From positions 1 through 64,000 of IMG/VR virus record IMGVR_UViG_3300008629_000003: a stretch of DNA of 64,000 nucleotides; one strand, given 5' to 3'. The stretch comes from a virus. The position numbers were made by a program, and so were the translations under genes. Below, one piece after another: positions 10,526 to 57,096 of this stretch. The notes below the pieces were generated by a model. It was not told the DNA's origin. It searched no databases and saw only the letters and a list, made by a program, of their open reading frames with translations. Positions within the stretch are counted from its first letter, which is position 1. Every line of letters starts with the position of its first letter.

Positions 10526-10570
10526 GTATATAGAACGGGGGGGATGACCCCCCCCGGTCTGGAGGTTCAA

Positions 10571-11310: not shown

Positions 11311-11325
11311 TCGCTCTTCCCGCAT

Positions 11326-12791: not shown

Positions 12792-12815
12792 CGCGGCGGC
12801 GCGCTCCTCACCTCA

Positions 12816-13286: not shown

Positions 13287-13300
13287 ACCCGCCGAATCCC

Positions 13301-13355: not shown

Positions 13356-13399
13356 GTATACAGATGGGGGGGATGAACCCCTCCACTCTGGAGGTTCCA

Positions 13400-39072: not shown

Positions 39073-39301
39073 TGATTGCCTCTAGTCGAGCGCGCTCCGC
39101 TAGAAGAGCCCTGAGACGGCGGTGCGTAAAGATGCCGCCGACGTCTTTGCTCAGGGCTTCTTGGGCCTTCTGTATTGCTGGCCCCATCGTGTCGAGCTGG
39201 GCCTTCGCTCGGGCGATCAGCTTCTTGCGCTGCGCGTCCGACTGAAGCCGGTGGGTTTTAAGGCGTACCAGATGACCGACTGCTTGTTGGTGCTGACTCA
39301 T
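39059..39301 (-). CDS. Small helical protein (80 aa)
   Basis: ATG 39301 overlaps the stop of the 2135-residue gene (ATGA). It is basic and helical (LQSDAQRKKLIARAKAQLDT; LRALLAERARLEAIIG), likely a coiled coil. No family is recognised. Coupled translation with the giant kinase/helicase gene suggests it is a partner or assembly factor of that protein. Confidence 0.78.
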   Translation of the reverse strand: MSQHQQAVGHLVRLKTHRLQSDAQRKKLIARAKAQLDTMGPAIQKAQEALSKDVGGIFTHRRLRALLAERARLEAIIGRD

Positions 39302-42300
39302 GCTGCCCCTTTGTGCTTTTCTTGGAGGGCCTTTTGGTACGCGAAGGCGACCCCGTGCTCGTCTAGGTTAGCGAGCGGGCTTTGGAATACATCGGCAAGC
39401 CCGCTTTTACGGCGCAATCTGCGGCGCGCGGACGTGTCGAATTCTGTGTCTGTGTGCCAATCGTGGACGTCCACATTTCCCGTTTGGCCTTGCCGGTACG
39501 CACGGCCGGATCTCTGGGCGTGACTCTTCATCGTTTGCGGGACGTCGTAGTGGTGGATCGCTTTCCCTCGCTGAAGATTGAGCCCCGCCTCTCCCGACGC
39601 CGTGGATACAATGACGTCGTGCTTCGGCGGGCCGCTCCCCTTCGGGTCGAATCCAAGCCTCACCGAATCGCGAGCCGACGCGGTGAGTCCCCCATGGTAC
39701 AGCGCGGAACGTAGACCGCGGCGGCGAAGCTCTTCGTGGATAAGTTTCGCGCCTGCCAGAGAATCGGAGAACACAATCGAAGGTTTCCCCTTTTGGCTGT
39801 TGCCGTCACGGTCCACATAGAGCCCGTGGTTTACGTCGTGCTCCAGCACGTCGGCCATTTGCTTGAGTTTTTGGTTGTGCTCTACCGGGGCCAGGTTTAC
39901 CGCGCGGCGCATAGCGGACTCTCGAATGATTCCGAGGCTCCGCGACAAGTCACGCGCTACGCGTTCGTGGTCGGCGGCGGGAATATCGAACTTTCCAGGC
40001 GCCGCCAAGAACTTCATCGCTTCCACATCTACGCCCCCACGTTGCCGGGCGGCCCTTGCTCGCTCGTACATTTTTTTGGTCTTGTCTACCAACGCCGCGT
40101 GCTTTCCCGTTAGCTTGATCGGTCCTTCGCCGGGCACCTTCCGTCCCTCTACGATCCGCGGGTTGGAGCTATCCAGACGCTTGACCCCTTCTGGCTTCAC
40201 GTGGGCCGTGTAAGTCATGTGGGCCATCTCGCGGCGGATCGCGTCTGGATTGTGCGCGAGGTCTTGTCCATATGCCTGCATGAATTCGTGAGCGTCTTGG
40301 TACTTCACGGGATCGAGCTTCGATGCCATGGCGAAGACTTCGCGCTCATCGTTTTTGTGCGGCGTAGCCGTCCCGGCCAAGTAGTGTGTACGATTGATCG
40401 GGTGACTTACGGCGCTATTCATCATCGCGACCCCGCTTGGGTTGTCTCTCCACGTCCCAAGGTGCGCCTCATCCTCATACACCATGTGCTTTGGGATCCC
40501 GTGGGCATCGAAAGCCTCACGCATCCACCGGGCGCGGGTCTCGGGCGTGGCGCTTTCCATGTCGGTCCTCATTTGCTTGGGTGTTCGGCCATGGTGTTCG
40601 CTCATGAGCTGGAGGGCAGTGTCGCGGAATGCCTGGTGTGTCATCACCCGCATGTGCAACGAATCGTCTTTGAGCATTGCCACGCGGTCGGCGTGCTTTT
40701 TGCCAACGCCTGTGCTCCAATTGTATTGGCCCGGCTCGGTAAATTGAAGCATTGCGCTATCAAATTGCGATTGGACGGCAGCGGGCACCAGAAACAAACC
40801 GTGCTTTGTGTCGCCAGCGCTGTGTAGGTGTGTGAATCCCCCGATCCCGATCGCCGTCTTACCCGTACCAGTCCCAAGGAACGCTCCAACCGATCCAGAT
40901 TCCTGCAACATCTTGATCACGCGCTGGCCGTGGACACGCTCTTTATCCATGCGGATACCAAACAGCGGCACTTTTTGGCCAGCTTTGAAGCCCTTGCCGA
41001 CCTTGCTTACCATGGATGTTAGCTGCTCTTCGGCTTGTTTGCCGAGCGTGTGGCGCTCGCCTTTGCCGGGGTCCGGTAGCTTCCGCGCTTCTTTTTGGGG
41101 CGGCGGTTTTGCGCTGAACATCGCCATTTGGTTTTGCCTGTCGATCTCCTCGTGAACCAAATGCTCAGACGCTTTGCGCTTTGCCGCGCCCTTTCCGCCC
41201 ATATCCGCGAATCCGCCGCGCTCACGTTTTTGCACCTTGGCGTACATGCTTCGTTGTTCCGATAGATACTGGTCCAGCTCATCCGGCGTCGACGTGCCTT
41301 TTATGTGCCGCTCTTTGTTCGGGATTTCTTGAACGCCAACGCGCAACGATCGGCCCGTGAGCTGACCGTGGTGGCGCTGCATCGTTTTTGCGAAGTCGCC
41401 GCGGATCTCGTGCTGCATAGCGGTCTGGGCGAGCTCCAGAGACGTGTGCGCGTTTACAAACTTCCCCCACGCGGTTGGCTGCTTGGCGACCTCGTCTTTG
41501 ATTTCACGAACCCGAGCGGGATCTGGGTTGTCTCCGAGCGCGGAGATCGCATCTTGCAAGCTGGCGCGGCGGTATTTTTTGAGAACTTCGTCACGGTCGC
41601 GCGCCCAGTCCTTCCACTCTGGGGACGGCCCCGGCGCCATGAAGGACATACTCAGCGTCCCCCGATCCGGGTTTGGCTCGGGGCCTAGCTTTTGCATTTC
41701 GGCCATGTATCGGGTTTCATCGACCTTTGTTTTCTTGTCGATCCCCATTCGGTCATAGTAAAAATCTCGGAGCGCGGCCTTGTCGTCGTGCGTCATTTCC
41801 GCCAACGGCTTGAAGGCTGCGACCGCGGTTGGGTGTTCCGCAAGCGACCGAAATACCGCCTCGTGGGTATTTGGGTCGTTCACCTGCAAATCTTGGGAGT
41901 GGATAGCCCCGGCCGTTTTGCCGTAGGTCTTCTCCATGAACCGATCCGAAAGCCCCTCGAAATGTTCCGACACCTCCTCATACTTGACCTTTTTCCCGTC
42001 CTCCCCTCTCATCGGAAAGAGCTCACGCACGTGATCGATGTATTGCTGACGGTCGGGTGCTCGTTCTATGTTCTGCGGGCTCAACAGGTCGGTCATTACG
42101 GCCGACGGGTGCTCGCCCTCTGCCAGCCTAGATCCAATGTGGTCCTCTAAGCCTTGCCGCACGTCTGAACCCAGGTCCAAATCCTGATACAACGGAGGCG
42201 ACTCGGGGACCGGGTCATTAAACGACGAATTTGCACGGCGCGCGATTCCCGTTGGTAACCAGCCCTCCTCGTCGTGTTCGCCGTTACGAATCGCAACGGC

Positions 42301-45300
42301 ACGCGCCCGCTTTTCCATTTCGGCCTTCGGCGTCTTTGTGATCAAATTATCCCAGGAACCGCTCGGGATACTGACCTTTTTCTGCTTGTGGTCGACTTGG
42401 TAATGCTCGGGCCGCAATCCAACGGAATGAAGCCACTGGAGCGTCGTTGCTGTGTCGCCCTTGACTTCTAGTTGGTCGGGTAGACGCGTACGAAATGCGT
42501 GGCCCATGGTTGCCGTCGCTTCCATCTTGCCAATTGCCGCCCCGACGGCCGACTGTGCGTCGTCGATGTCTTGGTTGTAGGCGTCAAGCTGCAACAACGC
42601 CGTCTCAATATCCCCGGCCGTCTCCACCGCTGTTGACAGGTCGGGGACGATCTTGTTTGCGGTGGCGATGGCATCGGCCGCCACCGGTTCCAATCGGTCG
42701 GCGTGATACCCCTCCAGCGCGTGCAAGACCGTGGATCCGTCGTGGCCGTCGGACTCCAGCGCAAACCGAGTCAGAATCGCCGCATTTTTCAATCCTATGG
42801 CCTCGACTGTGCTTCGGTCTAGATAGCGTTGACCACCAATACCAAGAGACACATCGGCGATTTCTGAATAATGCGCCTGGGCCACGGAGTTTAACGCCAC
42901 CGAGCTACCCGTATCGTGCAGACCCAAAAGCTGATTAGTGAGCGACCGCTGGGTCTGCTCTCGTATGGATTCGGTTGTTTTAGTGTCTAGCGCCTCGCTC
43001 ACGTCGATCTTGAAAGCCGACCGAGCCGCTAGATAGTCGCCCTTCTCGATCTCCTTGTTGAGCTTGCGGAACTCTTTCGACTTCTGGGCGAGCTCCACCG
43101 CGTCCGACAACACCTCGCGCATTTCTGCGAGCTCCACCGGCTGGGGGGGGGCTTTTTCTGCCTCAAGCAACCCCAGACGTTTGGCCGTCCCGGCCGCGCG
43201 GGCAAATGACCCGACCATGTCTCCATGCGCCAGGGCCTTCATTGCGGTGTGAGGCGATTCTTCTTTTTCAATTTCTGCAAAACGCTTTGCGCGCGACTTC
43301 TCCACCTCAAACCGGCGCAGCTTGGCGGCGGCGGCGCGCTGGAGCTCTTCTTTGCCGTCGTCGGCCGTTTCTTCCAACCCTCGCCGCTTCATTTCCTCAC
43401 GTACGGCCGGGTGCTTTAGCGCCGCGGCGTCGCCTTCTGATGCGGCCTTTAGCAGTCGCGCGTCTTGCAGGGCTTGAAGCGACCGTCGGGTCACCTCGTC
43501 GCTGGCTTTTGGTGGCGTCGAAGGTATTCCGCCTTTGTCATCCCGACCGCCTAATCGCTCCAGCTTTTTGTCGGGGCTTGGTTGAGAGTCGATGATCTCC
43601 AGCGCAGCCTCAGCCGCTTTGGACCCAACTTCCGACTTTCCCGCTGATCGACGTTGCTTGCGTTTTCGCCGGTCGATTTTTCTCTCTTCTCGTTCGCGGT
43701 TATCTAGTTGCAACGCCAACGTCGCCAACTCTTGCGCCTTTGCCGCTACGGCCGGCGTTTCTTTCATCGCTTGCGCGACGTTGGCTTTCCAACCCGCTTG
43801 CTGGCCTTTTGCTTCGGCCACCTTCTCGGCAATCTCGCGCGCTTGCGCCTTTGCTTCTCGTAGCTGTTTGGCATGGTGCCGCGAAAGCACCAGATTTTTG
43901 GCACCCTTCGGCATGTGGATCAAGTTGGATTCGTCTAGATCCTCGGATACGTTGCCAGCTTTGGCGCGAACCTTTTCGATAAAATCCCGCTCGGCGCCGC
44001 GCTTGGCATCTTTGACCTTTTGCTTGGCCTGCTTTTCGTCCTCAATAGCCGCCGCGCTCATTTTGCTTTTGCGCTTTTTCTCTTCGACGGCCTTCTTCTT
44101 TCGCCGGCCTTTGGCCTCTTTCTTGTACTCCTCCTCCGATTTAATGTCCTTGAGTTTGAGGTAGCTTAGCTTTCCACCGGCGCCGCCGACAATACGGTGA
44201 ACCCCTTCGCCGGCCGGCTCAATGATCACCGGCACCCCGCGCTCATCTTTGCCATTCGGGTGCACGGTGATCCACCGCTGGCCAGGCTTGAGAGGGAGTG
44301 AAGCTTTTCGCATGGGTTGCGGCAACAGACCCGAAAGCTTGTCATAAGTCGCCTGGTATTTCTCGGTCTCCTCTTCGGACGCAAGAAACCACATGACGCT
44401 GGACAGGTGGTCAGCCCACAAACGCCACCGACGCGACGCTCTTTCGATCCGCCCCGGGTCTCTTGACTCCAACGCGCTCTCTAGGATTTTTCGGCGGGGT
44501 CGCTCTTGCTTCTGTAGCTCTTGGACGTTTTCTGGAAACAGGGCGTGGTCGTGGCGATAGTAGAACGAAGAGAGCTCCTCCACGTCGGTGGCTTCGTCGC
44601 CCCCCTCAACTGCTTGGCCTAGATCCATCATCTGGAGGTGACCGTTTGCATCTCGGCCGACCTGGATCTGATCGTTGATTGTCCAGCCGTGGTCGTGCAT
44701 GTGCAACACAGCGTCGCGGACGTGGTCTAGCTCGTCGGGGGTCAGGTCTTTGGCTTCGTCCAAATACGGCCGAATCATCCAAAACCGGCCGTCGTAGACG
44801 CCGCCGCTTGCCTTTTGCACCATCGGCAAATCTTGCAACGCTTTGCGAGCGAGGTATTCGTTGCGCAAATGATCGATCGCTTCGGCTGGCGTTCGGTGGC
44901 CGTCGCTTTCGGCCTGAAACGGCGTCGTGGTTGAAACCTTAACGACGTGGCCGCCCACCCGATACACGACCCCGTCCTGCCCTTTTCCTAGATACTTGCC
45001 GCCACCGCTCAACAGCTTTTTGATTACGGGGTGTGGAGCTCCCTCGGGGTCGTGGTGGAGCTCTTTACGCATGTCGTGAATATGGTGCGGGACCGATTGT
45101 GTCGGCACCTTGTACGGCCGGCTAGTGTGCTCCCCGCCGTGGGTAAACGAGCGCTTACGGGTGAGCCATGTATGATTTTCGTCCTGCTTGTGAACATGAA
45201 TCGACCCGCCGCCGTACGCGTTCGGAGTTTCCCACGACGCGCCGGGCTTGACGTCATTTTCGTGGACCTTTTGCCAGCGCTTGACGCCCGTCTTGGTGGT

Positions 45301-45705
45301 CTTGAGTACAAGCCCCGGCCGGTTTTTTAGGCGCTGGCCTTTCTGCAACGCCTTTGGCACCCACGCCCGCCAATTCTTGATCGCCGACACTGGGAACCGC
45401 TTTTCCCCCTTTGGCGAATGTGCGTCGTGGACCGTGTATTGGCCGTGTTCGATCCGGTGGGATGACCCATCCTCGGCAATGGCCCGCACGCCCGCGGCGC
45501 CCGACGATTGGCTCAGGCCACGGTACGCGTTCCCGTTTGCATCGGCCCAGCGTAGATAAGCGCGACGGCCCCAGCCAACTGACGCATAGCGGTGCTTGTG
45601 GGGCACCTTGACCGAAAACGATTCTCCGCTATCTCCGCAGGTTATGTCCAGCTCGACGTGGCTTGGCCTTGCTGTCGTGCAACACCTACAAGGACGAAAG
45701 GGCAT
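39298..45705 (-). CDS. Giant virion protein: protein-kinase-like domain plus SNF2 helicase (2135 aa)
   Basis: ATG 45705 has AAGGTGACAC upstream. The N-terminus has an EHGQYTVHD module (about 85-95) and a GVKRWQKV module (140-147). Residues 236-400 look like a protein kinase: Gly loop YLGKGQDGVVYRV (238-250), Lys256 (HVVKVS), Glu283, HMHDHGWTINDQ with Asp345, and MDLGQA with Asp361 in the DFG place. After MRKAS (465-469) comes a small beta module shared with the 1273-residue helicase, then ~1000 helical residues. The C-terminal ~530 residues are a SNF2 helicase: LGTGTGKTAI, YEDEAHLG, LAGTATPHKN, STASGEAGLNL, QRSGRAYRQG. It resembles DarB-like proteins delivered by P1, without a methylase. Confidence 0.88.
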   Translation of the reverse strand: MPFRPCRCCTTARPSHVELDITCGDSGESFSVKVPHKHRYASVGWGRRAYLRWADANGNAYRGLSQSSGAAGVRAIAEDGSSHRIEHGQYTVHDAHSPKGEKRFPVSAIKNWRAWVPKALQKGQRLKNRPGLVLKTTKTGVKRWQKVHENDVKPGASWETPNAYGGGSIHVHKQDENHTWLTRKRSFTHGGEHTSRPYKVPTQSVPHHIHDMRKELHHDPEGAPHPVIKKLLSGGGKYLGKGQDGVVYRVGGHVVKVSTTTPFQAESDGHRTPAEAIDHLRNEYLARKALQDLPMVQKASGGVYDGRFWMIRPYLDEAKDLTPDELDHVRDAVLHMHDHGWTINDQIQVGRDANGHLQMMDLGQAVEGGDEATDVEELSSFYYRHDHALFPENVQELQKQERPRRKILESALESRDPGRIERASRRWRLWADHLSSVMWFLASEEETEKYQATYDKLSGLLPQPMRKASLPLKPGQRWITVHPNGKDERGVPVIIEPAGEGVHRIVGGAGGKLSYLKLKDIKSEEEYKKEAKGRRKKKAVEEKKRKSKMSAAAIEDEKQAKQKVKDAKRGAERDFIEKVRAKAGNVSEDLDESNLIHMPKGAKNLVLSRHHAKQLREAKAQAREIAEKVAEAKGQQAGWKANVAQAMKETPAVAAKAQELATLALQLDNREREERKIDRRKRKQRRSAGKSEVGSKAAEAALEIIDSQPSPDKKLERLGGRDDKGGIPSTPPKASDEVTRRSLQALQDARLLKAASEGDAAALKHPAVREEMKRRGLEETADDGKEELQRAAAAKLRRFEVEKSRAKRFAEIEKEESPHTAMKALAHGDMVGSFARAAGTAKRLGLLEAEKAPPQPVELAEMREVLSDAVELAQKSKEFRKLNKEIEKGDYLAARSAFKIDVSEALDTKTTESIREQTQRSLTNQLLGLHDTGSSVALNSVAQAHYSEIADVSLGIGGQRYLDRSTVEAIGLKNAAILTRFALESDGHDGSTVLHALEGYHADRLEPVAADAIATANKIVPDLSTAVETAGDIETALLQLDAYNQDIDDAQSAVGAAIGKMEATATMGHAFRTRLPDQLEVKGDTATTLQWLHSVGLRPEHYQVDHKQKKVSIPSGSWDNLITKTPKAEMEKRARAVAIRNGEHDEEGWLPTGIARRANSSFNDPVPESPPLYQDLDLGSDVRQGLEDHIGSRLAEGEHPSAVMTDLLSPQNIERAPDRQQYIDHVRELFPMRGEDGKKVKYEEVSEHFEGLSDRFMEKTYGKTAGAIHSQDLQVNDPNTHEAVFRSLAEHPTAVAAFKPLAEMTHDDKAALRDFYYDRMGIDKKTKVDETRYMAEMQKLGPEPNPDRGTLSMSFMAPGPSPEWKDWARDRDEVLKKYRRASLQDAISALGDNPDPARVREIKDEVAKQPTAWGKFVNAHTSLELAQTAMQHEIRGDFAKTMQRHHGQLTGRSLRVGVQEIPNKERHIKGTSTPDELDQYLSEQRSMYAKVQKRERGGFADMGGKGAAKRKASEHLVHEEIDRQNQMAMFSAKPPPQKEARKLPDPGKGERHTLGKQAEEQLTSMVSKVGKGFKAGQKVPLFGIRMDKERVHGQRVIKMLQESGSVGAFLGTGTGKTAIGIGGFTHLHSAGDTKHGLFLVPAAVQSQFDSAMLQFTEPGQYNWSTGVGKKHADRVAMLKDDSLHMRVMTHQAFRDTALQLMSEHHGRTPKQMRTDMESATPETRARWMREAFDAHGIPKHMVYEDEAHLGTWRDNPSGVAMMNSAVSHPINRTHYLAGTATPHKNDEREVFAMASKLDPVKYQDAHEFMQAYGQDLAHNPDAIRREMAHMTYTAHVKPEGVKRLDSSNPRIVEGRKVPGEGPIKLTGKHAALVDKTKKMYERARAARQRGGVDVEAMKFLAAPGKFDIPAADHERVARDLSRSLGIIRESAMRRAVNLAPVEHNQKLKQMADVLEHDVNHGLYVDRDGNSQKGKPSIVFSDSLAGAKLIHEELRRRGLRSALYHGGLTASARDSVRLGFDPKGSGPPKHDVIVSTASGEAGLNLQRGKAIHHYDVPQTMKSHAQRSGRAYRQGQTGNVDVHDWHTDTEFDTSARRRLRRKSGLADVFQSPLANLDEHGVAFAYQKALQEKHKGAA

Positions 45706-45708
45706 GTG

Positions 45709-45933
45709 TCACCTTGGGAGATCAGACGCATCATGGCCGGTCACGGGGCTATATCGGATCGCGCCGGCTGTTTCTTTCAAGTCGTGCAGGAGCTTCCGGT
45801 AGCGTTCCCGCTCTAGCGGAGAGCTAGAAGACTGGATCGCTTTTTCGACGCGACCAACCGCCGCCTCTAGTTTTCCGCTCGATTTTTGAAGCTTGATCTC
45901 TGCCAAAATCGACTCAGCATGTAGCGCTTTCAT
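45709..45933 (-). CDS. Small coiled-coil protein (74 aa)
   Basis: ATG 45933 starts three bases before the end of... the helicase gene's stop at 45,937, and its own stop lies three bases before the kinase/helicase start. It is helical (ESILAEIKLQKSSGKLEAAV; RERYRKLLHDLKETAGAI). No family is recognised. It probably assists one of the two giant neighbours. Confidence 0.75.
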   Translation of the reverse strand: MKALHAESILAEIKLQKSSGKLEAAVGRVEKAIQSSSSPLERERYRKLLHDLKETAGAIRYSPVTGHDASDLPR

Positions 45934-45936
45934 ATT

Positions 45937-48900
45937 CTACCCCCGAAACCAAAACGTCCCCACACGGCGCAGCGGGCGGGCCTCCCGAGTGGGACGCGCC
46001 GGTGCAGCTTTTACGAATACAAGGCGCCGCCCCTTGGCCATTTTCTTGGCCCCCTCCACAAACATCCCGGGCGCGGTCGCCTTCAACACCTTGAGTTGCC
46101 TGTGCAGGCCGTTCCAATGGTGATGCTCAAACGGGCTGTCACCATATCGATAGGTGTGGATCTTGAAATCGCCGACGCGGTTTGACCGACCAAGCCGGCC
46201 GTGCGCTTGTAGCATTTGCGCGGCGTCGTCGGGATTGCCCAAGACGTGAAGGTGGTCTCCTTCCGCCAAGTTGTGGCCGCTGGCGCTTGTTCGGTCGATC
46301 AAGAGATAGCCGCCCTTTGTCCCTTTCCACGCGCGCTTACGCTCCTCGATAGCAGCGACCGGCTTTCCATCTCGCTTGACCGTTGCACCCTTCGCGCTCT
46401 GGGTGATGTTTCGCACGTTCGCGCGGTCCACACCCATCCCGTGAAGCATAGCCGTAACCGACCGACGCTGATCTGCGCTGTCCACAAAAATGACGTGTCG
46501 TTCGTCTTTCTTCGCGCCCTGTATCTTTTTTTGCAGGGTGGAAAGCTTTGGATTGTGGCTCACATCGCCACCCCCTAGATTTGCCCGATGCTCTTTTTCC
46601 ATTTGAGCCATCGCCTTCTCTGTTGCTTTCTTGCGTAGAGCTCCAAAGGAGGTCTCGGCATACCCCCGCACGCCTGCACGCTTCTTGTCGTAAAACTGAT
46701 CGATCGTTGCTTGAACGTGCGCCCCGACGCGCGCCTCGATCCGTTTCTGCGCCCGTAGCTGCGGTTTCGACATTTTGACCGGGTTGTCCGTGTGCTCGAT
46801 GTTGTAGTGCGGCGCGACCTGTCGATCTGCGGACATGTGCGGCTTTAGCTCGTCGTACATCATTCGTTGGATCGCGGCGTCCTGTGCGTTCGTTCCGCCA
46901 CCAAACCCACTGAACGCCCGTTCGAACCGCGTTCGATAGCCAAGAACGCCCGGGCGAGCCCAGTTGACAATATCGTAAGCCTCAACCGGGTGCTCGGTCG
47001 CCGGCGTGGCGGTCAAGGCGTGGCGGTTCTTTGCTGGGATTTTAAAAATCCGTTTCGCACCCGCTGACATTTTGCCGCTTCCGCTTTTGCTGCGAAGCTC
47101 TTGCGGCTCGTCAATCCCTACGCTGTCCCACTCGTGAGCCTCCGCTAGGGCTGCGTGGTCGTACCTGCCGGCGTGCGTGTGGCCTACGATCACAGTTGAC
47201 CCCTCTGGGGCTGCCGCTAAAATGGCGTGCCTTTCTGCTTTGGTGCTTTTCGCAGGCAAAACGACGACCGGGATATTGGTAAACGATTCGATCTCTGCTT
47301 TCCATTGTGCTTGACGTCCATCTGGGACGATCCGTAAATGGCGGCCTTTCGGGTTGTCTTTCAGCATTTTGCCCGCGACGCCGACCGACACCAGCGTTTT
47401 CCCACCGCCCGTCCTCATGGTCAACAGGCCACCGCCCGAGCCATGTAGCCACTCGGTGTTGTTGCGCTGGTCGGCCATCAGGCTGATCTTTTTCCCGGCC
47501 ATGTGCTTGAGGTCACTTGGCAACATTGAAGCGTCTGGGAACGTGTCTCGAAACCCGTGGACCTTGTAGTCGTGGACCCACTCTCGCCCCTCCGCGTCTT
47601 TGGCGATCCCGTCTGTGTTTCGCTTTACCGAGTCCCATTTTGCGTTATCCGCTCGGTCGGCCTCTGTGCGCGTCACGAACTTTCGGAGCGCTTGACTGTC
47701 GGTGTGAATCTCGTGCATTCCCGTTTGCAGATTATACCGGACTTTCTTCTTAAATCGGCCAAGCCGCGCCAACTTATCCTCTAGGGCTATCTTCGACGCG
47801 ACCTTGATCACCACCGGGTGATGCTTTCGCCAACCCTCGCCCAAGGCCATCTCACCAAAGTGATACATCGACGCGGACACCTGCATACTCCCGAGCGCAC
47901 CCCCAAGGTTTTCGCGCTGCTCCATGAGGTTGCGCGCTCGGAGCATTTCGATCGTTATTTCGGATTGTAGGTCGCCCTTCTCGACCTGCCTTTCTAGATC
48001 GTCCGCTTGGTTTTGTAGCTCTGCGTGGCGGGCTAGGGCTTTCTTCTCGGTGTCGCGCTGGCCTTTTACGTTGTCGCTTCCCAGCTTCGACACCCATTGC
48101 GCGAAATCACGATCGGACATCTCGCTGCGCATCCGTTGTACCACCGCCACAGATGCGGCCTCGGGGCCTAGCGCGTCGATCAGCTTTTTGACATCGTATC
48201 GGACGGCCAACTCGTCGCCGATCAAGCCCGCGATCGCCGTGGACGCTCCATTGGTGACCGCGCCGTTCAGCTTGTTGCCGATGTGCTCGTTCCAATGTGG
48301 CATGATCGCTTGGTAAAACGCACCATCTGACCCCGCGGACATCGCTTGCTCTCGAAAGTCGATCGCGAAATTTTCGAGCTCTTCGTCGGTTAGGGACCGC
48401 GCCTCGATTTTGAGAGCCTCAAGCGCTGTCGGTGAGGCGTTCTCAGCTTCGGGCAACGCTTCCAAGGTTGCGGCGATTTCCTTTGAGTCCCGGCGAGCTA
48501 CAACGAGCTCCCGAAACCTCTCGACGGCCTCTTCTGCGGCCTCGTGCGACATGATCGGGCGCGTCTCGGGCTCGGGCTCGGCGTCCTCTCCAGCGTCATC
48601 CTCGGCGGCACCATCCTGAATCGGGCCATCTTCGCCGCCGATCGTTATCATCGGCGGCGAAGATGTATCTCCCGGGTCTCCCTCCTGATCCTCGGGTGCG
48701 CCATCGGGCGCGTGCTCCTTGGCCCAGGAGGCCGGGTCGGCGTCGGGGTCGCTTTCGCTTTCGACTTCGTCTTCAGTGCTTCCCACTGTATCAGGACCGC
48801 CGGTTGTTGTCGGCGTGGTTTCTACTTCCGCCTCTGCGGGGACAAAAGGGGCGCCGTCGTCTGGTACGTCGTTCTCCTCAAACCGACTGTCCTCTCGGGC

Positions 48901-49758: not shown

Positions 49759-50132
49759 AGTTTAAACGTCCCAGGGTACCGGGTGACGGGGGCAGCATAG
49801 GACCGAAAGACTCCGCGGTCGGGAACCTTGCCCTCTCGGAATTGTGCCACAAGTTGAGGCGCTAGAGCTCGGGCCGCTTTCATCGTTGGGCAAATGATAT
49901 GGTAGGGGAGCGCGTGGTTCGGTGTTTCAACCGACAAAACGCCGACACCCGCCGCGGACTTCACGAACCGAAACATCAACCCGTCAACGCGGAACGAACG
50001 CCCACCCTGCGACGCTCCGGCCCCGCCCGTTGGAGACCAAACCGTCTCCACCGCTTTGGCGAGCTTGGCCAAGCCGATGCGGCGTCGAATGGTCAGCCTT
50101 ACCGGAATCCCGTATCCATCAACTAGCTTCAT
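49755..50132 (-). CDS. Hypothetical protein (125 aa)
   Basis: ATG 50132 overlaps the topoisomerase gene stop and its own TGA overlaps the helicase start (ATGA both sides). It begins MKLVDGYGIPVRLTIRRRIG; basic, with a strand-rich middle (RSFRVDGLMFRFVKSAAGVG) and helical end. No family is recognised. Tight coupling on both sides marks it as part of the giant-protein unit. Confidence 0.78.
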   Translation of the reverse strand: MKLVDGYGIPVRLTIRRRIGLAKLAKAVETVWSPTGGAGASQGGRSFRVDGLMFRFVKSAAGVGVLSVETPNHALPYHIICPTMKAARALAPQLVAQFREGKVPDRGVFRSYAAPVTRYPGTFKL

Positions 50133-53100
50133 TTTTTGCCTCGTTTAAACGGGTTGTGCTTTTTGAGCTTTTCCAGGTATTTGGCGAACGCGCTCTCCTC
50201 TTTGGACAATACCCCGCGCGCCTTTTCCATAGTCTTGCTCCCTGATATCGTGAGACCTTGCCGGTAAGCTTCCACCACGGTGGGGTCGATGTAATTGTCG
50301 AGCGCGGTCTTTACTATGTGGCCCCATTCCGTCTTAACTTTCGGGCCATCTTTGGCCGCTACGACCTTGTGGTCGGTGTCTCCCAGAGCCTTCTGGTACG
50401 CCTTGCGCTCCTTTGCCGAGTGAAACCCCACGTGGCCGCCCGCGTAGACCTTGCCCCCGTGCTTCTTTGCCATTGCTCGATCTGGCTCTGCGTGCTTGAC
50501 GAAGTGCTTCCGCGTTTTCCCTTTTTTGTGCCCTAGCGCTTTCGCTGCTGCCATTGCGGCCTTCTCGATCTTGACCTCTGCGTCTTTGGCGCTTGTTGGC
50601 GGTCCAAGCTTGTCGGCTGCTTGCGCGAACAAATTCGACGCATGGAACGTCCGAAAGTCTTTGACTGTGCCGCCGTTGGTGTGAGCTCGGACATAATTTC
50701 GAAGAACCGCCGCGCTAACCGGCGCGGATGTGCCGTTCGCCCGAACATATTGGAACAGGTTTTTAGACGCGCCTGGCTGCTTTAGAAGGTGCGCCACGAT
50801 CCGCGCCACCTTTGGGTCTTTCATCGTTTTAACCTGCGGCACGCCTGCCTTGCCGGCGTATCGCATGGTCACCGTGTCACCATTGACCCGCACATGCGAG
50901 GATTTTAGGGTCGTCACCCCATACGATCCCTTGGCGGCGCTCGACGTGTTTCCCGCGCGAATTAGGGTCGCATCAACCAGCGCCACCATCGCCGCCGAAA
51001 CGGCATCTCTCGACGTTGGCGCTAGGTCTAGGTGGTCCTGTATGATGCCCCTCGCGTGCCCGAGACCCGTGGTGAAACGGGCCATTTTACGGAACTTTTC
51101 CTCCGCATTTTTTACTAGGTACGCATTCCGATAGCTGTTGACCTTTTTCCCCTGGGCGTTGCGCCAACTCATAGAGCTGTTCTCTTCCGGCTTAGAGATC
51201 GTGACCTTTGTTCCGAGGGGTGGATACTTGCTGTGCTCTGGAAATCGCTTTTGCAGATCGGCAAGGTACTTCTTGTCGGCGCTCTTTTTCTTCGCGGCGC
51301 GACGCTCGGCCGGCGTCGCCTCTTTTTCACCGGTGGCGGCTTTTCGCGCCGCGACGGCCGGGTGGCTGTCTTGGTGCTTCGCGTAGTGCCCATGGTCGAC
51401 CTGCTCTTGCTGGCCGGTTTTTTTGTCGATGACCGTGACGCCCTTTTCGCCGGAGCTCATGGTCACGCCGCGGCGCACCTTACCAGATTTGGAGCGGTAC
51501 TTTACGACTTCGCCCTTTGGTTTTCTCGGCTCTTTTTTTTTTTCAGTCTTGGGCGGGCGCGCTTGTGCTTGTGGGTCTTGCCCCGTCTTTTGCCACCGAC
51601 GGACGCCCGGGTTTTTCTTTGATGCGACAAGCTGTTGGCCCTGGTGCTTACCTGCGCCGGCCTGGGCCGGGTCCACCTTGGGCTGACCGTTGCCGACGGC
51701 CTTTCTCATTACAAGCCGGAGCCCAAACCGGATCCGCGCTTTGTTGAGCTCTTCCCAAGCATCGTGTTTAGCCCACGCGCGAGACTCCGCGGCCGTTTGC
51801 CTTTTTTCGCCGCGCCTGTAATCTGCCTCCTTCACTTCTTGGCGCATCTTTTTGTAATGTTTGGTTTCCAGTGCTTTGAGGCGCTTCTTTTCAGCGGGAC
51901 TCAACACGCGCTCGGTTTTCACGCGGGTGATGACGGTTTGCTTGTCGCCTCGCCATTCGTCGTGTTTCTTGATCGTGCCGTGCAGCTTGTACGAATGGCC
52001 GACTTTGAACGGCGCTCGGCCTTTGGGTGCGTTTTCATATGGCTGGGCGGACGGAGCGTGATCGTAGGTGGGCGAGCTTGAGAAGTATTTTAACGTTTGC
52101 CCGCTTTTCGTCTTGAAGGTCAACAGGGTGGTCGTGCCATATTGCCCGTGGATGTCGCGCGTTGACACCAGCGTCGCCTGTTGTGCCGGTGTGGGCGGCT
52201 TGACCCCTTTCTTGCGCTGTGCCTGGGTCATTGCCAACTCCCCAAACTTTTCGCCGGGCTTCCCTATGTGCTTTTGCGGTGGCGGGGCCTTCTTTGCGGG
52301 CGCGGCTTTTTCTGTTGCCTTCTTTTCGGCCTCTCTCTTTAGGTGGTTGTCGTACGCGTTAACCGCTGACACCGCCACGCCCATGTGGTTCTCGGGCACG
52401 CCCGTGTTGCCTGCTCCATGGTTTTCGCCCAAGGCGCGTAATTTTTGATAGTACCCAGAACGGCTATATGCCGGGATCTTTTTCATCCACGCGATCACCT
52501 TTTTGGCTTTCTCGGCGGCTTTCTTGTCTGTTCGGGCCGATGACCATACTCCGACGCTCTGCTGGCTTTTCAGGAAACTACTTGTGCTCTTGACTTCCGA
52601 TCCCGGCCGGGAATTCGCATCCGCGCGGGCGGCCGACATATACCCATCGTGCGGGTTTCCTGGGTGGTCCAACCAGTGAGCCGTCGCCTGTATGATTGCA
52701 GGAAGGGCAACCTCTAGTTTCCCGCGCGGCTCCTTCGCGTAACTGTCAAACTCTTTTGTGTCCCAACTGGATAACCACTCCGCAGCCGTCGCGGCGGTTT
52801 TGGGGTCTTGACCGAAAAAATCACCTAGACACGTTCGGCCGACTTGGACGTGCTTGTTGTGGTCATCCTTTAGGACGTGCAGCTTGGACCGTTGGCGGTT
52901 TTTTCCGCAAAAATCACAATGTGAGCCCGACTTGTGAAATTGGTGCGGCACTTTTTGGCCGCGGTGGTGGTTGACCATGTTTCGCTTCGCGCCGGGCTCA
53001 AAGCTTCCCACGTAAGCCCAGCCGTGGGACTTCATTTCCGGCCCGGTGATTTTGACCGCCACGACCGGCACCTTTTGTCGCACCTGTTTCGTGTCGCGTT

Positions 53101-53950
53101 CGCCCATCATGGAGTAGCTACCCTCCACGGGTTCCCCGGGATGCTCCCACGGCACCGTCCGCAACATCGTGGCCATTTTCTTGCCCAAGATTTCCATATG
53201 CGGCGGCTGTAGTCCTAGCTTGATCGCTCGCTTTTGCATTCGAGCAAATTTCTTTTTAACCGTCGCTAAGTTTTCTTGTGGAATAGCGTGCAGGCTAGAG
53301 CGCGGCCCTTCATTAGCCGCCTGGATCGCCTTCTCTTTGGCGTCTTTTAACTTCCCGTGGCCAACGCTGACCCACTCCACATGATCGTCGTCGAAGACGT
53401 GGCCGACCTTCCACTTCTTCCCGGCCTTCTCAATGACCGTCGTGTTGTCGCCGACGGTGACTAGGTAGCCCCCTTTGCCGTCGCGCTTCGTTTTCGACTT
53501 GATCGGCGCCGGCTCCTCTACATCACCCTCAGTGTACCGCTGCCTAGCCTGGGCACGCTGGGCCTTAATCTTGGCCCAGACGTCGTCTTCCTTTTTCTCG
53601 GGCGCTGTCTTTTTGGCCGGTGCCTTTTTCTTCGCCGCGGCTTTCTTCTTCGCCGCGGCTTTCTTCTTTACCGGTGCTTTCTTCTTCGCCGGCGTGGCGG
53701 CTTTGGGCTCGTCGTCGAAAATCTCGGGAAACAGAATCCGAAAAGGATCCATCTCTTCCGGCTTCTCGGCCGGCTTCTCGGCCGGCTTCTTCTTGGGCTT
53801 CTTCTTGGCGGCTGGCTTGACCTTGTCTGGATACTCGTAGCGCCATTTTCCGCTCGGGAGCTTTTTCTTCCACCCGCCTTTGTTGCCGCGGGTGACGCGT
53901 TGCCAGCCAACGCCCGGGGGCTTTGCCGATTTCAGGAGAATGATCTTCAT
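50129..53950 (-). CDS. Giant virion protein with type IB topoisomerase domain (1273 aa)
   Basis: I chose ATG 53950, overlapping the previous stop (ATGA). The N-terminus carries a GKWRYEYPDK module and a histone-H1-like K/A/P tail (about 43-120). A zinc motif CDFCGKNRQRSKLHV, then HVQVGRTCLGDFFG lies at about 345-380. Further modules are GVRRWQK (783-789) and VDHGHYAKH (851-859). Residues about 890-1235 are a type IB topoisomerase: LIRAGN (Arg998), YAGKAG (Lys1034), KDFRTFHAS (Arg1100, His1103) and DNYIDPTVVEAYRQG (Tyr1220). About 70 extra residues separate the LGH segment from the tyrosine motif. It may relax or bind DNA during or after ejection. Confidence 0.87.
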   Translation of the reverse strand: MKIILLKSAKPPGVGWQRVTRGNKGGWKKKLPSGKWRYEYPDKVKPAAKKKPKKKPAEKPAEKPEEMDPFRILFPEIFDDEPKAATPAKKKAPVKKKAAAKKKAAAKKKAPAKKTAPEKKEDDVWAKIKAQRAQARQRYTEGDVEEPAPIKSKTKRDGKGGYLVTVGDNTTVIEKAGKKWKVGHVFDDDHVEWVSVGHGKLKDAKEKAIQAANEGPRSSLHAIPQENLATVKKKFARMQKRAIKLGLQPPHMEILGKKMATMLRTVPWEHPGEPVEGSYSMMGERDTKQVRQKVPVVAVKITGPEMKSHGWAYVGSFEPGAKRNMVNHHRGQKVPHQFHKSGSHCDFCGKNRQRSKLHVLKDDHNKHVQVGRTCLGDFFGQDPKTAATAAEWLSSWDTKEFDSYAKEPRGKLEVALPAIIQATAHWLDHPGNPHDGYMSAARADANSRPGSEVKSTSSFLKSQQSVGVWSSARTDKKAAEKAKKVIAWMKKIPAYSRSGYYQKLRALGENHGAGNTGVPENHMGVAVSAVNAYDNHLKREAEKKATEKAAPAKKAPPPQKHIGKPGEKFGELAMTQAQRKKGVKPPTPAQQATLVSTRDIHGQYGTTTLLTFKTKSGQTLKYFSSSPTYDHAPSAQPYENAPKGRAPFKVGHSYKLHGTIKKHDEWRGDKQTVITRVKTERVLSPAEKKRLKALETKHYKKMRQEVKEADYRRGEKRQTAAESRAWAKHDAWEELNKARIRFGLRLVMRKAVGNGQPKVDPAQAGAGKHQGQQLVASKKNPGVRRWQKTGQDPQAQARPPKTEKKKEPRKPKGEVVKYRSKSGKVRRGVTMSSGEKGVTVIDKKTGQQEQVDHGHYAKHQDSHPAVAARKAATGEKEATPAERRAAKKKSADKKYLADLQKRFPEHSKYPPLGTKVTISKPEENSSMSWRNAQGKKVNSYRNAYLVKNAEEKFRKMARFTTGLGHARGIIQDHLDLAPTSRDAVSAAMVALVDATLIRAGNTSSAAKGSYGVTTLKSSHVRVNGDTVTMRYAGKAGVPQVKTMKDPKVARIVAHLLKQPGASKNLFQYVRANGTSAPVSAAVLRNYVRAHTNGGTVKDFRTFHASNLFAQAADKLGPPTSAKDAEVKIEKAAMAAAKALGHKKGKTRKHFVKHAEPDRAMAKKHGGKVYAGGHVGFHSAKERKAYQKALGDTDHKVVAAKDGPKVKTEWGHIVKTALDNYIDPTVVEAYRQGLTISGSKTMEKARGVLSKEESAFAKYLEKLKKHNPFKRGKK

Positions 53951-56900
53951 GCTTCGTCCCCAATGTGGACATAGTGTCCATGTTCGACCCGGTGGAGCTC
54001 TCCGGTCTTGTGGTCCATAACCGACACGCCGTCCAATCCTGACGCGTGCAGGTCGCCCGTACAGGGCTCTCCGGTCTTGGGGTGGCGGTACCTCACCCCC
54101 TTGCCCTTGGAACCCCCTGGGGTGCCGCGGTGCGCCTTGCGCAGCATGACACGGGCTTTCTGTAGACTGCTTGGGCCAAGCTTTTTGTTTTTCGCCAGGT
54201 ATTTCAACACCGCGGCGCGATCGCTCCACTTGGCTTTGGGCAGGTGAATCTGAAAGAAACTTGCCCCCGAGTCTTTGTCCACCGCCGAAACAAACCACTT
54301 GTCGGGCTTGTCCACAACGTACGCGTGGATCTCTCCGTCGGCAAACGTCCCCAACAACTCCATGCCGGCCACATTTGGCACGTTGGGCGCTGGCGGGTGG
54401 GCGGACATAGGCCCGTGGTACTGCGGCGTTACTTTTGGCTTGGCGTGCCCGCTCGTTTCCTTCCACGGCCTCGTATGCTCCGCGTCGGCCCATTTACCCC
54501 CGCGGGGTCCGAGGAAGGGTCCAGCGCTGGCCTTACGCAGCATGACACGGGCTTTCCGTAAACCGTGCTCATACTCGTAATCTTCGCGGGCATCTTTTGC
54601 GTCTCGGTATGCGTTGACGTTCGCTAGTAGCGATTTCCTGCTAAACGCGACGACCTCAGACGCTTTTGAGGTAGCAGCGCCCGGGTTCTTTACGATGATC
54701 CCGTCGTGCCCCTGACTTATCAGCTTGCGAACGTCGGCGTGCGTTAGGTCTTTTGGGCTGATTTCTCCCTTGTTTTCTACTACCTTGGGGTTGCTTAGGG
54801 CTACGTGGGTTTTGTGTAGGTTGGGTCCGTATCGGTTGGCATATTTCCGGCGTGGAGACAGGTAAATGCCGGCCTCGGACCCAGCGTCCGCTCCGTGAAT
54901 AGTTCGACCGTGGTTCGCCTGATAGACCGTCAACGGCCCGCCGTCTTGACCCGTTAAAGGGATCGGCGGTCCATGTTGTTTATAGACGCTCGACAAGTCG
55001 TGATCGGCGGCGGGGTGTGACGCAGCGGCGGTGGATTCCTTCCACGGCCTTGTGTGCTCCGCGTCGGCCCACTTACCACCGCGGGGTCCGAGGAAGGGTC
55101 CAGCGCTGGCCTTACGCAGCACAAACCGAGCGCGGCGCCCCTTGGTCCGCATTCGCTTGTCGAGCTCTGCGTCTAGAGCGGTCTGGAGTAGGCTGTGCGC
55201 TTTTCTCATGTTGCCACCGCCCACGGCCTTGACCCTCACTTCGTACGTCCCGTCTTTTCGCCGCTTGACCTTTTCCACCTGAATTTTTCCGCCGACCACC
55301 ACCTCATGCTCGGCGTGGAACGTGGACAGCCCGCTAATGTCCGTCCCTCGTTTTGTCTTCATGGTCAGGATAACCGGGTGACGTTTTGTCGGTTTGGTGT
55401 GGCCCTCGTCCTTTTGCTCGGTTGCTGCGAAGGTTTCGGCGGCGGATCTCTGCTTAGACCAACTCGACATCTCGCGCAAGTCTATCTCTGCCCCTTTGGC
55501 TAGGCCCTTTATTGCCCCGGGTGGTAAGCGCACGCCGCGGTGGAGCTCTACGGCGTAATCACCCTCCACCTTGGCCAGCGTCTTGAGCACTTTGTAAGCT
55601 TGCTGGTGTAATTGCTTCGTGCTTTCGGCTTTCCATTGAAGGGTCTGGACTGGCTTTGCAAGCTTTTTTTGCCATTGCTTCGGGTCGCGCACGGACTTCA
55701 CATTGCCGGCCGTCCATAGCGTTAGCGCATCGAGCAAGGCCGCGTGCGTAGCAGGCAACGCGGCGCGGTGCCATTGAAATTTGAGCGCCTCTTCGCCGCC
55801 GTGGTACCTCGCGAGGCTAAACAGCTTCCACACGGTGTCGGGGTCTTTTCCTGACTTGCGCGCGGCCTCTTTGACCGATTTTCTTCCTGCGGCAACACAG
55901 TCGTCAAATGTCGCGCCCCCGGCGTTCTGCGCTCTCTTAAACGCCATCCGATAATGGAGACTCAACCCATGAAAATCATATCCAACATGCTTGAGGGCTT
56001 GTTTTGCTTCCTCGTTGGGAACGTGCGACATATTCGAAACAGGGTGATATTTCTTTTCCTCTTCAAGCTCGAAATAGGCTGCCTCTAGTCCTTTGGTGGT
56101 CCAGTTTACGGCGCCCCCCGGGGGCATGGTTCGCACCCGAATCTCTTGGTCTGGATACCAGACCTGCGTGTGCGTGCTCCACTTGCCCTGGAAGACTCGA
56201 CTATAGCCAAGCCCATCACCTAACGGCTTCCATTCGCTTGCGGCTCCCGTGCGTTGGGCTTCATCGGCCGGGGGTCGGGCAAGGTCGGCGGCTTCTTTTA
56301 GGTCCGACGCGCGGACTTTTTCGTGGTGAGCTTTATACTTTTCGAGGAATTCGGCCTCTGTCAGCTTGAGCTTTTCCCGGTATGGCTTGAGAAATCCATG
56401 GTCCTGCGCGTCTTTGTAGTGTCGCCACAACCCGACGGACATACTGTCCAGACCATTCCCTTCGTAATCGTGGTAGGCGTCTTGTATCCATTCGTTTAGC
56501 GCTGCCTCGTGGGCGGCTGGGCCGGCTTCTAGCGCGGCCTGGCGCTTTGCTTCCGTCTGCTTGTCGCGCGCAGTCTTCCACGCGCCACGCATCGCCTTTA
56601 GGATGTCACTCCGCGCCACCCCCTTGATCTCCTTTCCGATGACAGGCAAAAGATCGGCAATCTTGCCACCCCGCAGGAGCAACATTTGCGTTTTGCCCTC
56701 GTTCAAATCTGGCACCAACTTTTCCATTTCGGGCCATTTCTTTACTAAGAACATCTCAAGGCGTCGGCGGGCCTCTACGTCTTCTTTGTGGTGGTGGTGG
56801 TGGCTTTTGTAATAGGCGAGCGCATGTTTCCAAGCCCCCGCGGCGTCGTCCCCCCATTCTTCGGGGAGGCTTGGCTTCATGTCGTCGAAACGCATGTGAA

Positions 56901-57096
56901 AGTCTTTGCGGTTGCTATCTTCCGACCAGAACTGTCTATATTTCCATTTCTGCGCCCATTTTCTAGCCGCTTTGGGCGCCGGCTTAAACGACTTGTCGCC
57001 GACGCGGGTGTGTTCCTTCACTCTCACCACCTTGCCGCTCGGCAGGGTGCGAAAGTGAGACTTTACTTGGTGGGCTTTACCAAGAACAATCCGCAT
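53947..57096 (-). CDS. Giant virion protein with two ADP-ribosyltransferase-like domains (1049 aa)
   Basis: ATG 57096 has ATAGGTGATCG upstream. After an N-terminal helical region (with a natural HHHHH at about 99-103), residues 505-630 look like an R-S-E ADP-ribosyltransferase: VELHRGVRLP (Arg520), MSSWSKQRSAAETFA (SSWS 544-547) and FHAEHEVVV (Glu596, Glu598). Residues 720-825 resemble the polyvalent-protein ART family: LTVYQANHGRTIHGAD, GIYLSPRRKYANRYG, GHDGIIVKN, SEVVAFSR. LRKASAGPFLGPRGGKW linkers (660-676, 853-869) and MLRKA (985-989) separate the parts. The C-terminus ends VEHGHYVHIG. It lies just after the head genes, as T4 Alt-like injected enzymes might. Confidence 0.85.
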   Translation of the reverse strand: MRIVLGKAHQVKSHFRTLPSGKVVRVKEHTRVGDKSFKPAPKAARKWAQKWKYRQFWSEDSNRKDFHMRFDDMKPSLPEEWGDDAAGAWKHALAYYKSHHHHHKEDVEARRRLEMFLVKKWPEMEKLVPDLNEGKTQMLLLRGGKIADLLPVIGKEIKGVARSDILKAMRGAWKTARDKQTEAKRQAALEAGPAAHEAALNEWIQDAYHDYEGNGLDSMSVGLWRHYKDAQDHGFLKPYREKLKLTEAEFLEKYKAHHEKVRASDLKEAADLARPPADEAQRTGAASEWKPLGDGLGYSRVFQGKWSTHTQVWYPDQEIRVRTMPPGGAVNWTTKGLEAAYFELEEEKKYHPVSNMSHVPNEEAKQALKHVGYDFHGLSLHYRMAFKRAQNAGGATFDDCVAAGRKSVKEAARKSGKDPDTVWKLFSLARYHGGEEALKFQWHRAALPATHAALLDALTLWTAGNVKSVRDPKQWQKKLAKPVQTLQWKAESTKQLHQQAYKVLKTLAKVEGDYAVELHRGVRLPPGAIKGLAKGAEIDLREMSSWSKQRSAAETFAATEQKDEGHTKPTKRHPVILTMKTKRGTDISGLSTFHAEHEVVVGGKIQVEKVKRRKDGTYEVRVKAVGGGNMRKAHSLLQTALDAELDKRMRTKGRRARFVLRKASAGPFLGPRGGKWADAEHTRPWKESTAAASHPAADHDLSSVYKQHGPPIPLTGQDGGPLTVYQANHGRTIHGADAGSEAGIYLSPRRKYANRYGPNLHKTHVALSNPKVVENKGEISPKDLTHADVRKLISQGHDGIIVKNPGAATSKASEVVAFSRKSLLANVNAYRDAKDAREDYEYEHGLRKARVMLRKASAGPFLGPRGGKWADAEHTRPWKETSGHAKPKVTPQYHGPMSAHPPAPNVPNVAGMELLGTFADGEIHAYVVDKPDKWFVSAVDKDSGASFFQIHLPKAKWSDRAAVLKYLAKNKKLGPSSLQKARVMLRKAHRGTPGGSKGKGVRYRHPKTGEPCTGDLHASGLDGVSVMDHKTGELHRVEHGHYVHIGDEA
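54459..54542 (-). repeat. 84-bp direct repeat coding the linker, copy 1
   Basis: Nearly identical to 55,038-55,121 at DNA level; codes LRKASAGPFLGPRGGKW and the HTRPWKE that follows. The adjacent CAGCATGACACGGGCTTTC also occurs at about 54,145. Recombination between copies could shuffle domains in frame. Confidence 0.88.
55038..55121 (-). repeat. 84-bp direct repeat coding the linker, copy 2
   Basis: Second copy of the linker repeat, between the two transferase-like domains of the 1049-residue protein. It differs from copy 1 at only a few positions, so duplication or gene conversion is recent. Confidence 0.88.

What the first reader, a model, noticed from the sequence alone, without database searches (positions are those of the whole stretch)
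39298..57096. Four coupled giant proteins form a likely head-packaged host-takeover set
The sequence shows 1049-, 1273-, 1273- and 2135-residue proteins, mostly joined by ATGA overlaps, with small companions. They hold two ADP-ribosyltransferase-like domains, a type IB topoisomerase, two SNF2 helicases and a kinase-like domain, and lie between the MuF-like gene and the prohead protease. Families: T4 Alt-type injected transferases, P1 DarB-type helicases and the 'polyvalent proteins' of phages and conjugative elements. Inference: they are packaged in the head and ejected with the DNA. I am not aware of this exact combination being described in one virion.
Basis: partly seen in the sequence, partly recalled or inferred. 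Interest (0 to 1): 0.87.

Follow-up and report, generated by a model that had tools for sequence, protein, structure and literature searches.

The report
Giant cleavable cargo of phage heads
Four giant enzyme-bearing proteins of this bacterial virus carry, at their start and between their domains, the same short sequence that marks where the virus shell protein is predicted to be cut during assembly, so they are most likely packed into the virus head, cut into smaller enzymes and injected with the DNA.

Summary
Proteins of 1049, 1273, 1273 and 2135 residues lie between the MuF-like gene and the protease, with ATGA overlaps. TopoIB and two SNF2 ATPases are solid. The two ARTs have weak profile scores but plausible motifs. 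The 'kinase' has no profile support, though it belongs to a cassette family that recurs in head genes.

The main new result is a motif, h-x-K-[A/S/G]. P5 and P6 begin with it; it sits at an inner domain junction of P1, P5 and P6, near the P3 N-terminus, and at the N-terminal arm of the capsid protein. In relatives, 54 of 55 capsid proteins and 54 of 59 helicases carry it. Unrelated cargo genes in the portal-protease slot start with a leader like (M)..PILFLK|A/S. Across IMG/VR, 77 of 86 GPRGGKWAD modules have it just upstream (11% expected), and 66 of 80 such loci carry head or slot-helicase genes. HK97's shell protein has K-S at its cleavage site.

Best reading: head-packaged 'polyvalent' proteins, addressed and cut by the maturation protease, probably ejected with the DNA. 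A giant ART protein with this leader is labelled particle-associated in Yersinia phage fHe-Yen8-01. Packaging, cleavage and ejection are unproven in this phage. The leader/junction code appears undescribed.

The parts
53947..57096 (-). P6, 1049 aa: N-terminal domain of unknown kind, ART-like domain 1, ART-like domain 2, small C-terminal modules
55234..55617 (-). P6 ART-like domain 1 (residues 494-621)
   Evidence: PF01129 E 0.021; LHRG/SSWS/HAEHE; L139 match 9e-12
54637..54999 (-). P6 ART-like domain 2 (residues 700-820)
   Evidence: PF18760 ART-PolyVal E 0.016; motifs
57076..57096 (-). P6 N-terminal leader MRIVLGK|A (predicted head address and cleavage site)
55063..55131 (-). P6 junction FVLRK|ASAGPFLGPRGGKWAD (residues 656-678)
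54484..54552 (-). P6 second junction VMLRK|ASAGPFLGPRGGKWAD (residues 849-871), part of a 93-nt direct repeat with the first
54136..54156 (-). P6 third junction VMLRK|A (residues 981-987)
50129..53950 (-). P5, 1273 aa: phrog_2319 domain plus type IB topoisomerase
53927..53950 (-). P5 N-terminal leader MKIILLK|S
51911..53287 (-). P5 phrog_2319 region (residues 222-680), with CxxC...GxTCLxDF
   Evidence: (9.5e-49)
51698..51721 (-). P5 internal junction LVMRK|A (residues 744-751); near here the separate topoisomerase gene of L206 starts
50276..51226 (-). P5 type IB topoisomerase domain (residues 909-1225)
   Evidence: PF01028 4.9e-25; PDB 2f4q 7.8e-18
49755..50132 (-). P4, 125 aa, homologous to part of an InPase-TopoIB protein in L023
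45937..49758 (-). P3, 1273 aa SNF2-type ATPase
49639..49707 (-). P3 N-terminal leader-like VVVLKK|S...SLSK|A
46177..47622 (-). P3 helicase core (residues 713-1194)
   Evidence: phrog_62 1e-24
45709..45933 (-). P2, 74-aa companion after P3
   Evidence: no homologue found
39298..45705 (-). P1, 2135 aa: N-terminal module, kinase-like cassette, DarB-type helicase
44506..45051 (-). P1 kinase-like cassette (residues 219-400), absent from the closest P1 relatives
44251..44319 (-). P1 junction PMRK|ASLPLKPGQRWITVHPNG (residues 463-485), equivalent to the true N-terminus of helicases in PHB04 and Mecenats66
39331..40926 (-). P1 helicase core (residues 1594-2125)
   Evidence: phrog_62 5e-58
39059..39301 (-). 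80-aa companion in the position of P1-phage Ulx, conserved in L022, L023 and L091
37775..38800 (-). probable maturation protease
   Evidence: phrog_1028 E 0.024; L023 homologue 5e-84
37039..37806 (-). scaffold-like protein rich in h-x-K-[ASG]
36920..36946 (-). major capsid N-arm with ALEK|AVHSG
57861..59021 (-). MuF-like protein
   Evidence: phrog_2468 1e-4
59436..61286 (-). portal, with C-terminal GMTK|ARPI

Best explanation
The four giants are late-made, multi-domain 'polyvalent' cargo proteins of the phage head. A short hydrophobic leader ending in Lys, then Ala or Ser (h-x-K|A/S), brings cargo into the prohead and is cut by the maturation protease that also trims the capsid and scaffold proteins. 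The same site recurs at domain junctions because the giants grew by fusing formerly separate cargo genes. They would therefore be cut in the head into separate enzymes: ART1 | ART2 | small modules; phrog_2319 | topoisomerase; kinase-like | helicase. These pieces leave with the DNA and act in the first minutes: DarB-like ATPases and the topoisomerase on the incoming genome (anti-restriction, untangling), the ARTs on host proteins. Shown by sequence: order, domains, motif, its conservation and enrichment. Inferred: cleavage, packaging, ejection and targets.
For: Slot: portal-MuF-helicase-small gene-protease-capsid order in Morganella Mecenats66; the same slot in Bordetella PHB04; helicase-small gene-protease-capsid in Thermus Cumys. 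The slot in relatives holds swappable enzymes: RelA/SpoT, phosphatase, N6 and C5 methylases, InPase, TopoIB, LPD1, RadC. Motif: K-[A/S] before WITVHP in 54/59 helicases and in the capsid N-arm in 54/55 capsid proteins. It is the actual N-terminus of the unfused helicases (MKPILFLK|AS, MKRLMIK|AS). Leader consensus from 88 distinct proteins: P3 is F or L in 83, P2 is L in 42, though the search imposed neither. PHB04: leader in 4/12 slot genes versus 1/112 others, p=2.5e-4. Clustered IMG/VR genes: 27/232 in the slot versus 11/272 outside, p=0.002, with K-[AS] well above nine control dipeptide classes. GPRGGKWAD module: 77/86 with K[ASG] within 6 residues upstream versus 11% in random windows, P3 Leu 58/77; 66/80 of those loci carry portal, MuF, protease, capsid or slot-helicase genes. 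HK97 gp5 reads TFNK|SLGS at residues 103/104. Junctions as former gene ends: P1 K467 and P5 K750 match starts of unfused homologues. Direct support: the 2146-aa ART protein of fHe-Yen8-01 begins MLVLAK|A and is labelled phage particle associated in its record. P1 phage DarB is a head protein with an N-terminal capsid-targeting sequence (PMC9024508).
Against: No virion proteomics or cleavage data exist for this phage. The fHe-Yen8-01 label list is broad and includes replication proteins, so contamination is possible. The leader is found in only some slot genes. P1 phage DarB lacks h-x-K-[AS]. The window's own protease is recognised only weakly by profile. Some h-x-K-[AS] matches inside domains must be chance; only P6 exceeds shuffles on a strict test (p=0.0005), while P1, P3 and P5 do not. 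Loci share ancestry, so the counts are not fully independent.
Confidence: 0.75

Rival explanations
1. The proteins are packaged and ejected, but h-x-K-[A/S] is only a docking strand for scaffold or capsid and is not cut; the giants travel whole, like P1-phage DarB.
For: P1-phage DarB is packaged as a ~250 kDa protein with an N-terminal targeting sequence (PMC9024508). The hydrophobic stretch before Lys is itself conserved.
Against: The Lys-Ala/Ser pair is conserved where the capsid arm is expected to be cut and matches HK97 K103-S104. P4-P8 are unconserved at GPRGGKWAD junctions while P3, P1 and P1' are, as expected of a protease site.
Confidence: 0.15
2. The genes are late and head-linked, but the proteins act in the cytoplasm of the producing cell (for example in packaging, DNA maturation or superinfection exclusion) and are not in the virion.
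For: Position alone does not prove packaging; terminase and other non-virion proteins share such operons. No direct data for this phage.
Against: The shared leader with capsid and protease, the particle-associated giant ART in fHe-Yen8-01, and known packaging of P1-phage DarB. Terminases (0/9) and tail sheaths (0/13) lack the leader.
Confidence: 0.08
3. The shared motif reflects common ancestry of short linker modules, with no function in targeting or cutting.
For: Modules such as GPRGGKWAD and RWITVHPNG are clearly re-used, and loci are related.
Against: The leader precedes several unrelated module types, and capsid proteins share it without the modules. Flanks vary while L-x-K-[ASG] stays.
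Confidence: 0.05

Closest known systems
Polyvalent proteins of phages and conjugative elements (Iyer et al. 2017, PMC5512222)
   Same: Large multi-domain proteins next to virion genes; ART, SNF2/DarB, kinase, InPase, ParB, LPD domains; proposed to be delivered during invasion.
   Different: The passages of that paper read here do not describe TopoIB as cargo or a common N-terminal or junction leader; its one 'topoisomerase' occurrence is in a reference title. P1 and P3 here lack the methylase usually paired with SNF2.
Phage P1 Dar system (DarB, Ulx)
   Same: Homologous helicase (phrog_62 family), small gene after it, near portal and protease; P1 phage has a capsid-targeting N-terminus; a related polyprotein (L149) carries DarA_C and ddrB-ParB.
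   Different: No methylase domain in P1 or P3; different cargo (TopoIB, two ARTs); P1-phage DarB has no h-x-K-[AS] leader and its capsid protein is cut at E120|S121; no common consensus was found among Dar N-termini (PMC9024508).
T4 internal proteins and Alt with capsid targeting sequence
   Same: A short N-terminal leader removed by the prohead protease sends unrelated proteins into the head (PMC7411985); the P3/P1 layout of T4's (L/I)xE site (own knowledge) resembles LxK.
   Different: Lys instead of Glu at P1; here the signal also recurs inside giant proteins at domain junctions; the T4 leader is not homologous.
HK97 gp4/gp5 maturation
   Same: K-S at gp5 residues 103/104 with hydrophobic P3 (cleavage position from own knowledge).
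   Different: HK97 is not known to use this site for enzyme cargo.
SPN3US ejection proteins (PMC7411985, PMC10052503)
   Same: Many head proteins carry N-terminal propeptides cut by the prohead protease at one motif (AxE) and are ejected.
   Different: Different motif, long propeptides, no multi-enzyme polyproteins with repeated junction sites reported in the passages read.

Membership tests
Polyvalent proteins | Large protein joining several unrelated enzymatic domains, encoded beside virion or transfer genes | tested here: met
Polyvalent proteins | Shares named polyvalent domains (ART-PolyVal, SNF2 of DarB type, InPase, LPD, DarA_C, ddrB-ParB) | tested here: met
   In the window SNF2/DarB clearly, ART-PolyVal weakly; InPase, LPD1, DarA_C, ddrB-ParB in cargo of relatives
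Polyvalent proteins | Delivered into the host with the DNA | not testable with these tools
   needs ejection experiments
P1-phage DarB | Methylase plus SNF2-type helicase in one polypeptide | tested here: not met
   helicase only in P1 and P3; no methylase hit. In PHB04 a separate methylase-helicase lies in the same slot
P1-phage DarB | Homology of the helicase part | tested here: met
   phrog_62 5e-58 and 1e-24
P1-phage DarB | Followed by Ulx | tested here: inconclusive
   80-aa gene in place, conserved in three relatives, no profile match to a named family
T4 Alt-type injected ARTs | Sequence membership in the Alt family | tested here: not met
   no Alt family hit in Pfam or PHROGs; weak ART and ART-PolyVal hits only
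Type IB topoisomerase | Catalytic core with Arg, Lys, Arg, His, Tyr | tested here: met
   PF01028 4.9e-25; five residues aligned and kept in L023
Polyvalent protein kinase | Kinase superfamily profile match | tested here: not met
   no kinase hit for P1 219-400 or its homologues; AlphaFold model too poor to use
Capsid-targeting leader of the T4/P1 type | Short N-terminal peptide shared by unrelated head cargo | tested here: met
   (by sequence)
Capsid-targeting leader of the T4/P1 type | Sufficient to package a reporter and removed by the prohead protease | not testable with these tools
   needs experiment

The most novel reading that the evidence does not exclude
Many tailed phages share one Lys-based code, (L/F)-x-K|(A/S/G), that serves both as a head address for unrelated enzymes and as the cutting site that turns giant fusion proteins into sets of injected single-domain effectors, including a type IB topoisomerase; the cut is hidden from ordinary tryptic proteomics because trypsin also cuts after Lys.
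Probability: 0.6. Interest if true: 0.86.

Novelty: new variant of a known kind. Interest (0 to 1): 0.75.

Why it matters
If right, one can predict from sequence which phage proteins are packed in the head and injected, across a large and mostly unannotated set of phages, and read out the repertoire of first-minute effectors. It would give a common capsid address in a group where none is described (in P1 phage, a common consensus among Dar proteins was looked for by BLAST and not found). It adds type IB topoisomerases to the likely injected enzymes, in at least four phage lineages with unrelated head genes. It also makes a direct, cheap test possible with an isolated relative.

Tried and rejected
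AlphaFold on single sequences of P1 200-470 and P6 440-850 gave pLDDT 46 and 42 and was not used. Pfam and PDB searches did not support a kinase. P6 and P5 have almost no close relatives in IMG/VR apart from a near-identical contig. No prophage relative of the capsid protein was found in GTDB genomes. A loose motif count per protein was only modestly above shuffles, so the argument rests on conserved positions, N-termini and module junctions instead. The gene-call test on IMG/VR is noisy because naive ORF calls in GC-rich DNA include false genes. The P1-phage DarB N-terminus was checked for the leader and does not have it. A paper search for the module sequence found nothing.
Full report
What is there. 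The window is part of a 72.7-kb IMG/VR virus record. The late genes run on the minus strand: terminase, portal, MuF-like, two 123-aa genes, P6, P5, P4, P3, P2, P1, an 80-aa and a 91-aa gene, probable protease, scaffold-like protein, major capsid, tail sheath.

Domains. P5 holds a phrog_2319 region (9.5e-49) and a type IB topoisomerase (4.9e-25; PDB 2f4q 7.8e-18) with the five catalytic residues kept. P1 and P3 are DarB-type SNF2 ATPases (phrog_62 5e-58 and 1e-24) with intact motifs. P6 has two weak ART hits at separate places, with R, S-x-S-like and E-x-E-like residues for the first. P1 219-400 looks kinase-like by eye but has no profile support. It is a conserved cassette that recurs in other head-cargo proteins (E down to 8e-30) and is absent from the three closest P1 relatives.

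The slot. Homologues of P1 sit in the order portal-MuF-helicase-small gene-protease-capsid in Morganella phage Mecenats66; PHB04 has the helicase in the same portal-protease slot, and Thermus phage Cumys keeps helicase-small gene-protease-capsid. In PHB04 the slot also holds a RelA/SpoT-like protein, a phosphatase, an InPase and a 2097-aa methylase-helicase. Relatives carry other enzymes there, such as C5 DNA methylase, LPD1, InPase-TopoIB and RadC. So the slot is an exchangeable cargo bay.

The motif. In the alignment of P1 with four isolate helicases, the pair K467-A468 is invariant, and in PHB04 and Mecenats66 it lies at the protein's own N-terminus: MKPILFLKAS and MKRLMIKAS. Over IMG/VR relatives it is present in 54 of 59 distinct helicases, 1-14 residues before WITVHP. 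The major capsid protein has the same K-[A/S] in its N-terminal arm in 54 of 55 distinct sequences, just before the conserved '..GY.TD...GG.AL..QSLD'. The protease also carries MLKA near its start. This is where a maturation protease would be expected to trim the shell protein; HK97 gp5 has K-S at residues 103-104 (sequence; that this is its cleavage site is my own knowledge).

The leader. Unrelated cargo genes in the slot begin with the same peptide: VIVFLKAQ (RelA-like), MIILLTKAQ (methylase), VGAVVLLKAD (InPase), MIRFLLKSQ (C5 methylase in L022), MRIVLGKAH (P6), MKIILLKSA (P5). From 88 distinct leaders, P3 is F or L in 83 and P2 is L in 42, although the search imposed neither. In PHB04, 4 of 12 slot genes have it versus 1 of 112 elsewhere (p=2.5e-4), while Mecenats66 alone is not significant (p=0.16). 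In clustered IMG/VR genes it is 27/232 in the slot versus 11/272 outside (p=0.002), and K-[AS] clearly exceeds nine control dipeptide classes. Terminases (0/9) and sheaths (0/13) lack it.

The junctions. P6 contains the leader again before two copies of ASAGPFLGPRGGKWAD and once more near its end; the leader-plus-module copies are 92% identical as DNA. I searched IMG/VR for that module alone. Among 86 distinct contexts, 77 have K followed by A, S or G within six residues upstream, against 11% for random windows of the same proteins; P3 is Leu in 58 and hydrophobic in nearly all, while P4 to P8 are not conserved. Of 80 loci, 66 also carry portal, MuF, protease, capsid or slot-helicase genes, though the search had used none of these, and all 15 capsid proteins among them carry h-x-K-[AS] in the N-arm. 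Junctions correspond to former gene starts: P1 K467 is the N-terminus of unfused helicases, and the separate topoisomerase gene of L206 starts near P5 K750; L206 has terminase-portal-MuF-TopoIB-P3-like in a row.

Direct support. Yersinia phage fHe-Yen8-01, with a related head module, has a 2146-aa protein annotated as an ADP-ribosyltransferase; it starts MLVLAK|A and is marked as phage particle associated in the record. The label list is broad, so this is suggestive rather than decisive. In phage P1, DarB is in the head and its first 30 residues suffice to package a reporter (PMC9024508).

Mechanism. I infer: synthesis late; leader binds the prohead core; the protease removes leaders and cuts the junctions; pieces (P6: about 655, 193, 132 and 62 aa; P5: 743 and 523 aa; P1: 467 and 1668 aa) stay with the DNA and are ejected. 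Cutting into domains would also help passage through the tail. Packaging, cutting, ejection and targets are not shown. A cut after Lys is hidden in tryptic proteomics, which may be why it was not noticed.

Novelty. Head-packed polyvalent proteins and capsid-targeting leaders are known kinds. The Lys-based leader that doubles as an inter-domain cutting site, shared over many phages, and TopoIB as slot cargo (also in L206, L208, L211, L212 and L214) appear undescribed in the papers I could search. Hence a new variant of a known kind.

Noticed in passing
window 4013-13402, plus strand; 67-nt perfect repeat 6233-6299 and 6581-6647: CCCCTGGAGGTTCAAATG (ribosome site plus ATG) recurs 11 times with up to 3 mismatches (9 on the plus strand; 0.07 expected), in front of small genes of the early-looking half.
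   Followed up: partly
window 54450-54542 and 55029-55121: The P6 junction module is a 93-nt DNA repeat, 92% identical, which could drive cassette exchange by recombination.
   Followed up: partly
L004:21096-21989, L019:3770-4651 compared with capsid proteins: A peptide like the capsid N-arm just after K|A (KALEASY..D...GGGA.GVQSLD) is repeated near the C-terminus of the maturation protease in the PHB04 group; perhaps a built-in substrate mimic or self-cleavage site.
   Followed up: no
L208, L211, L212, L214: Type IB topoisomerase genes or fusions sit between portal and capsid genes in phages with unrelated head genes, including a portal-MuF-topoisomerase fusion in L214.
   Followed up: partly
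L149:2285-8623: One 2113-residue open frame with MuF-like region, InPase, ddrB-ParB, DarA_C and the kinase-like cassette, separated by K|A-GPRGGKWAD-type junctions.
   Followed up: partly
window 49755-50132: P4 is homologous to part of an InPase-TopoIB protein of L023, so it may be a detached topoisomerase companion domain.
   Followed up: no
record position 69681-70499 (outside the window): A stand-alone N6/N4 DNA methylase (PF01555 4.8e-31), possibly replacing the methylase missing from the DarB-type proteins.
   Followed up: no
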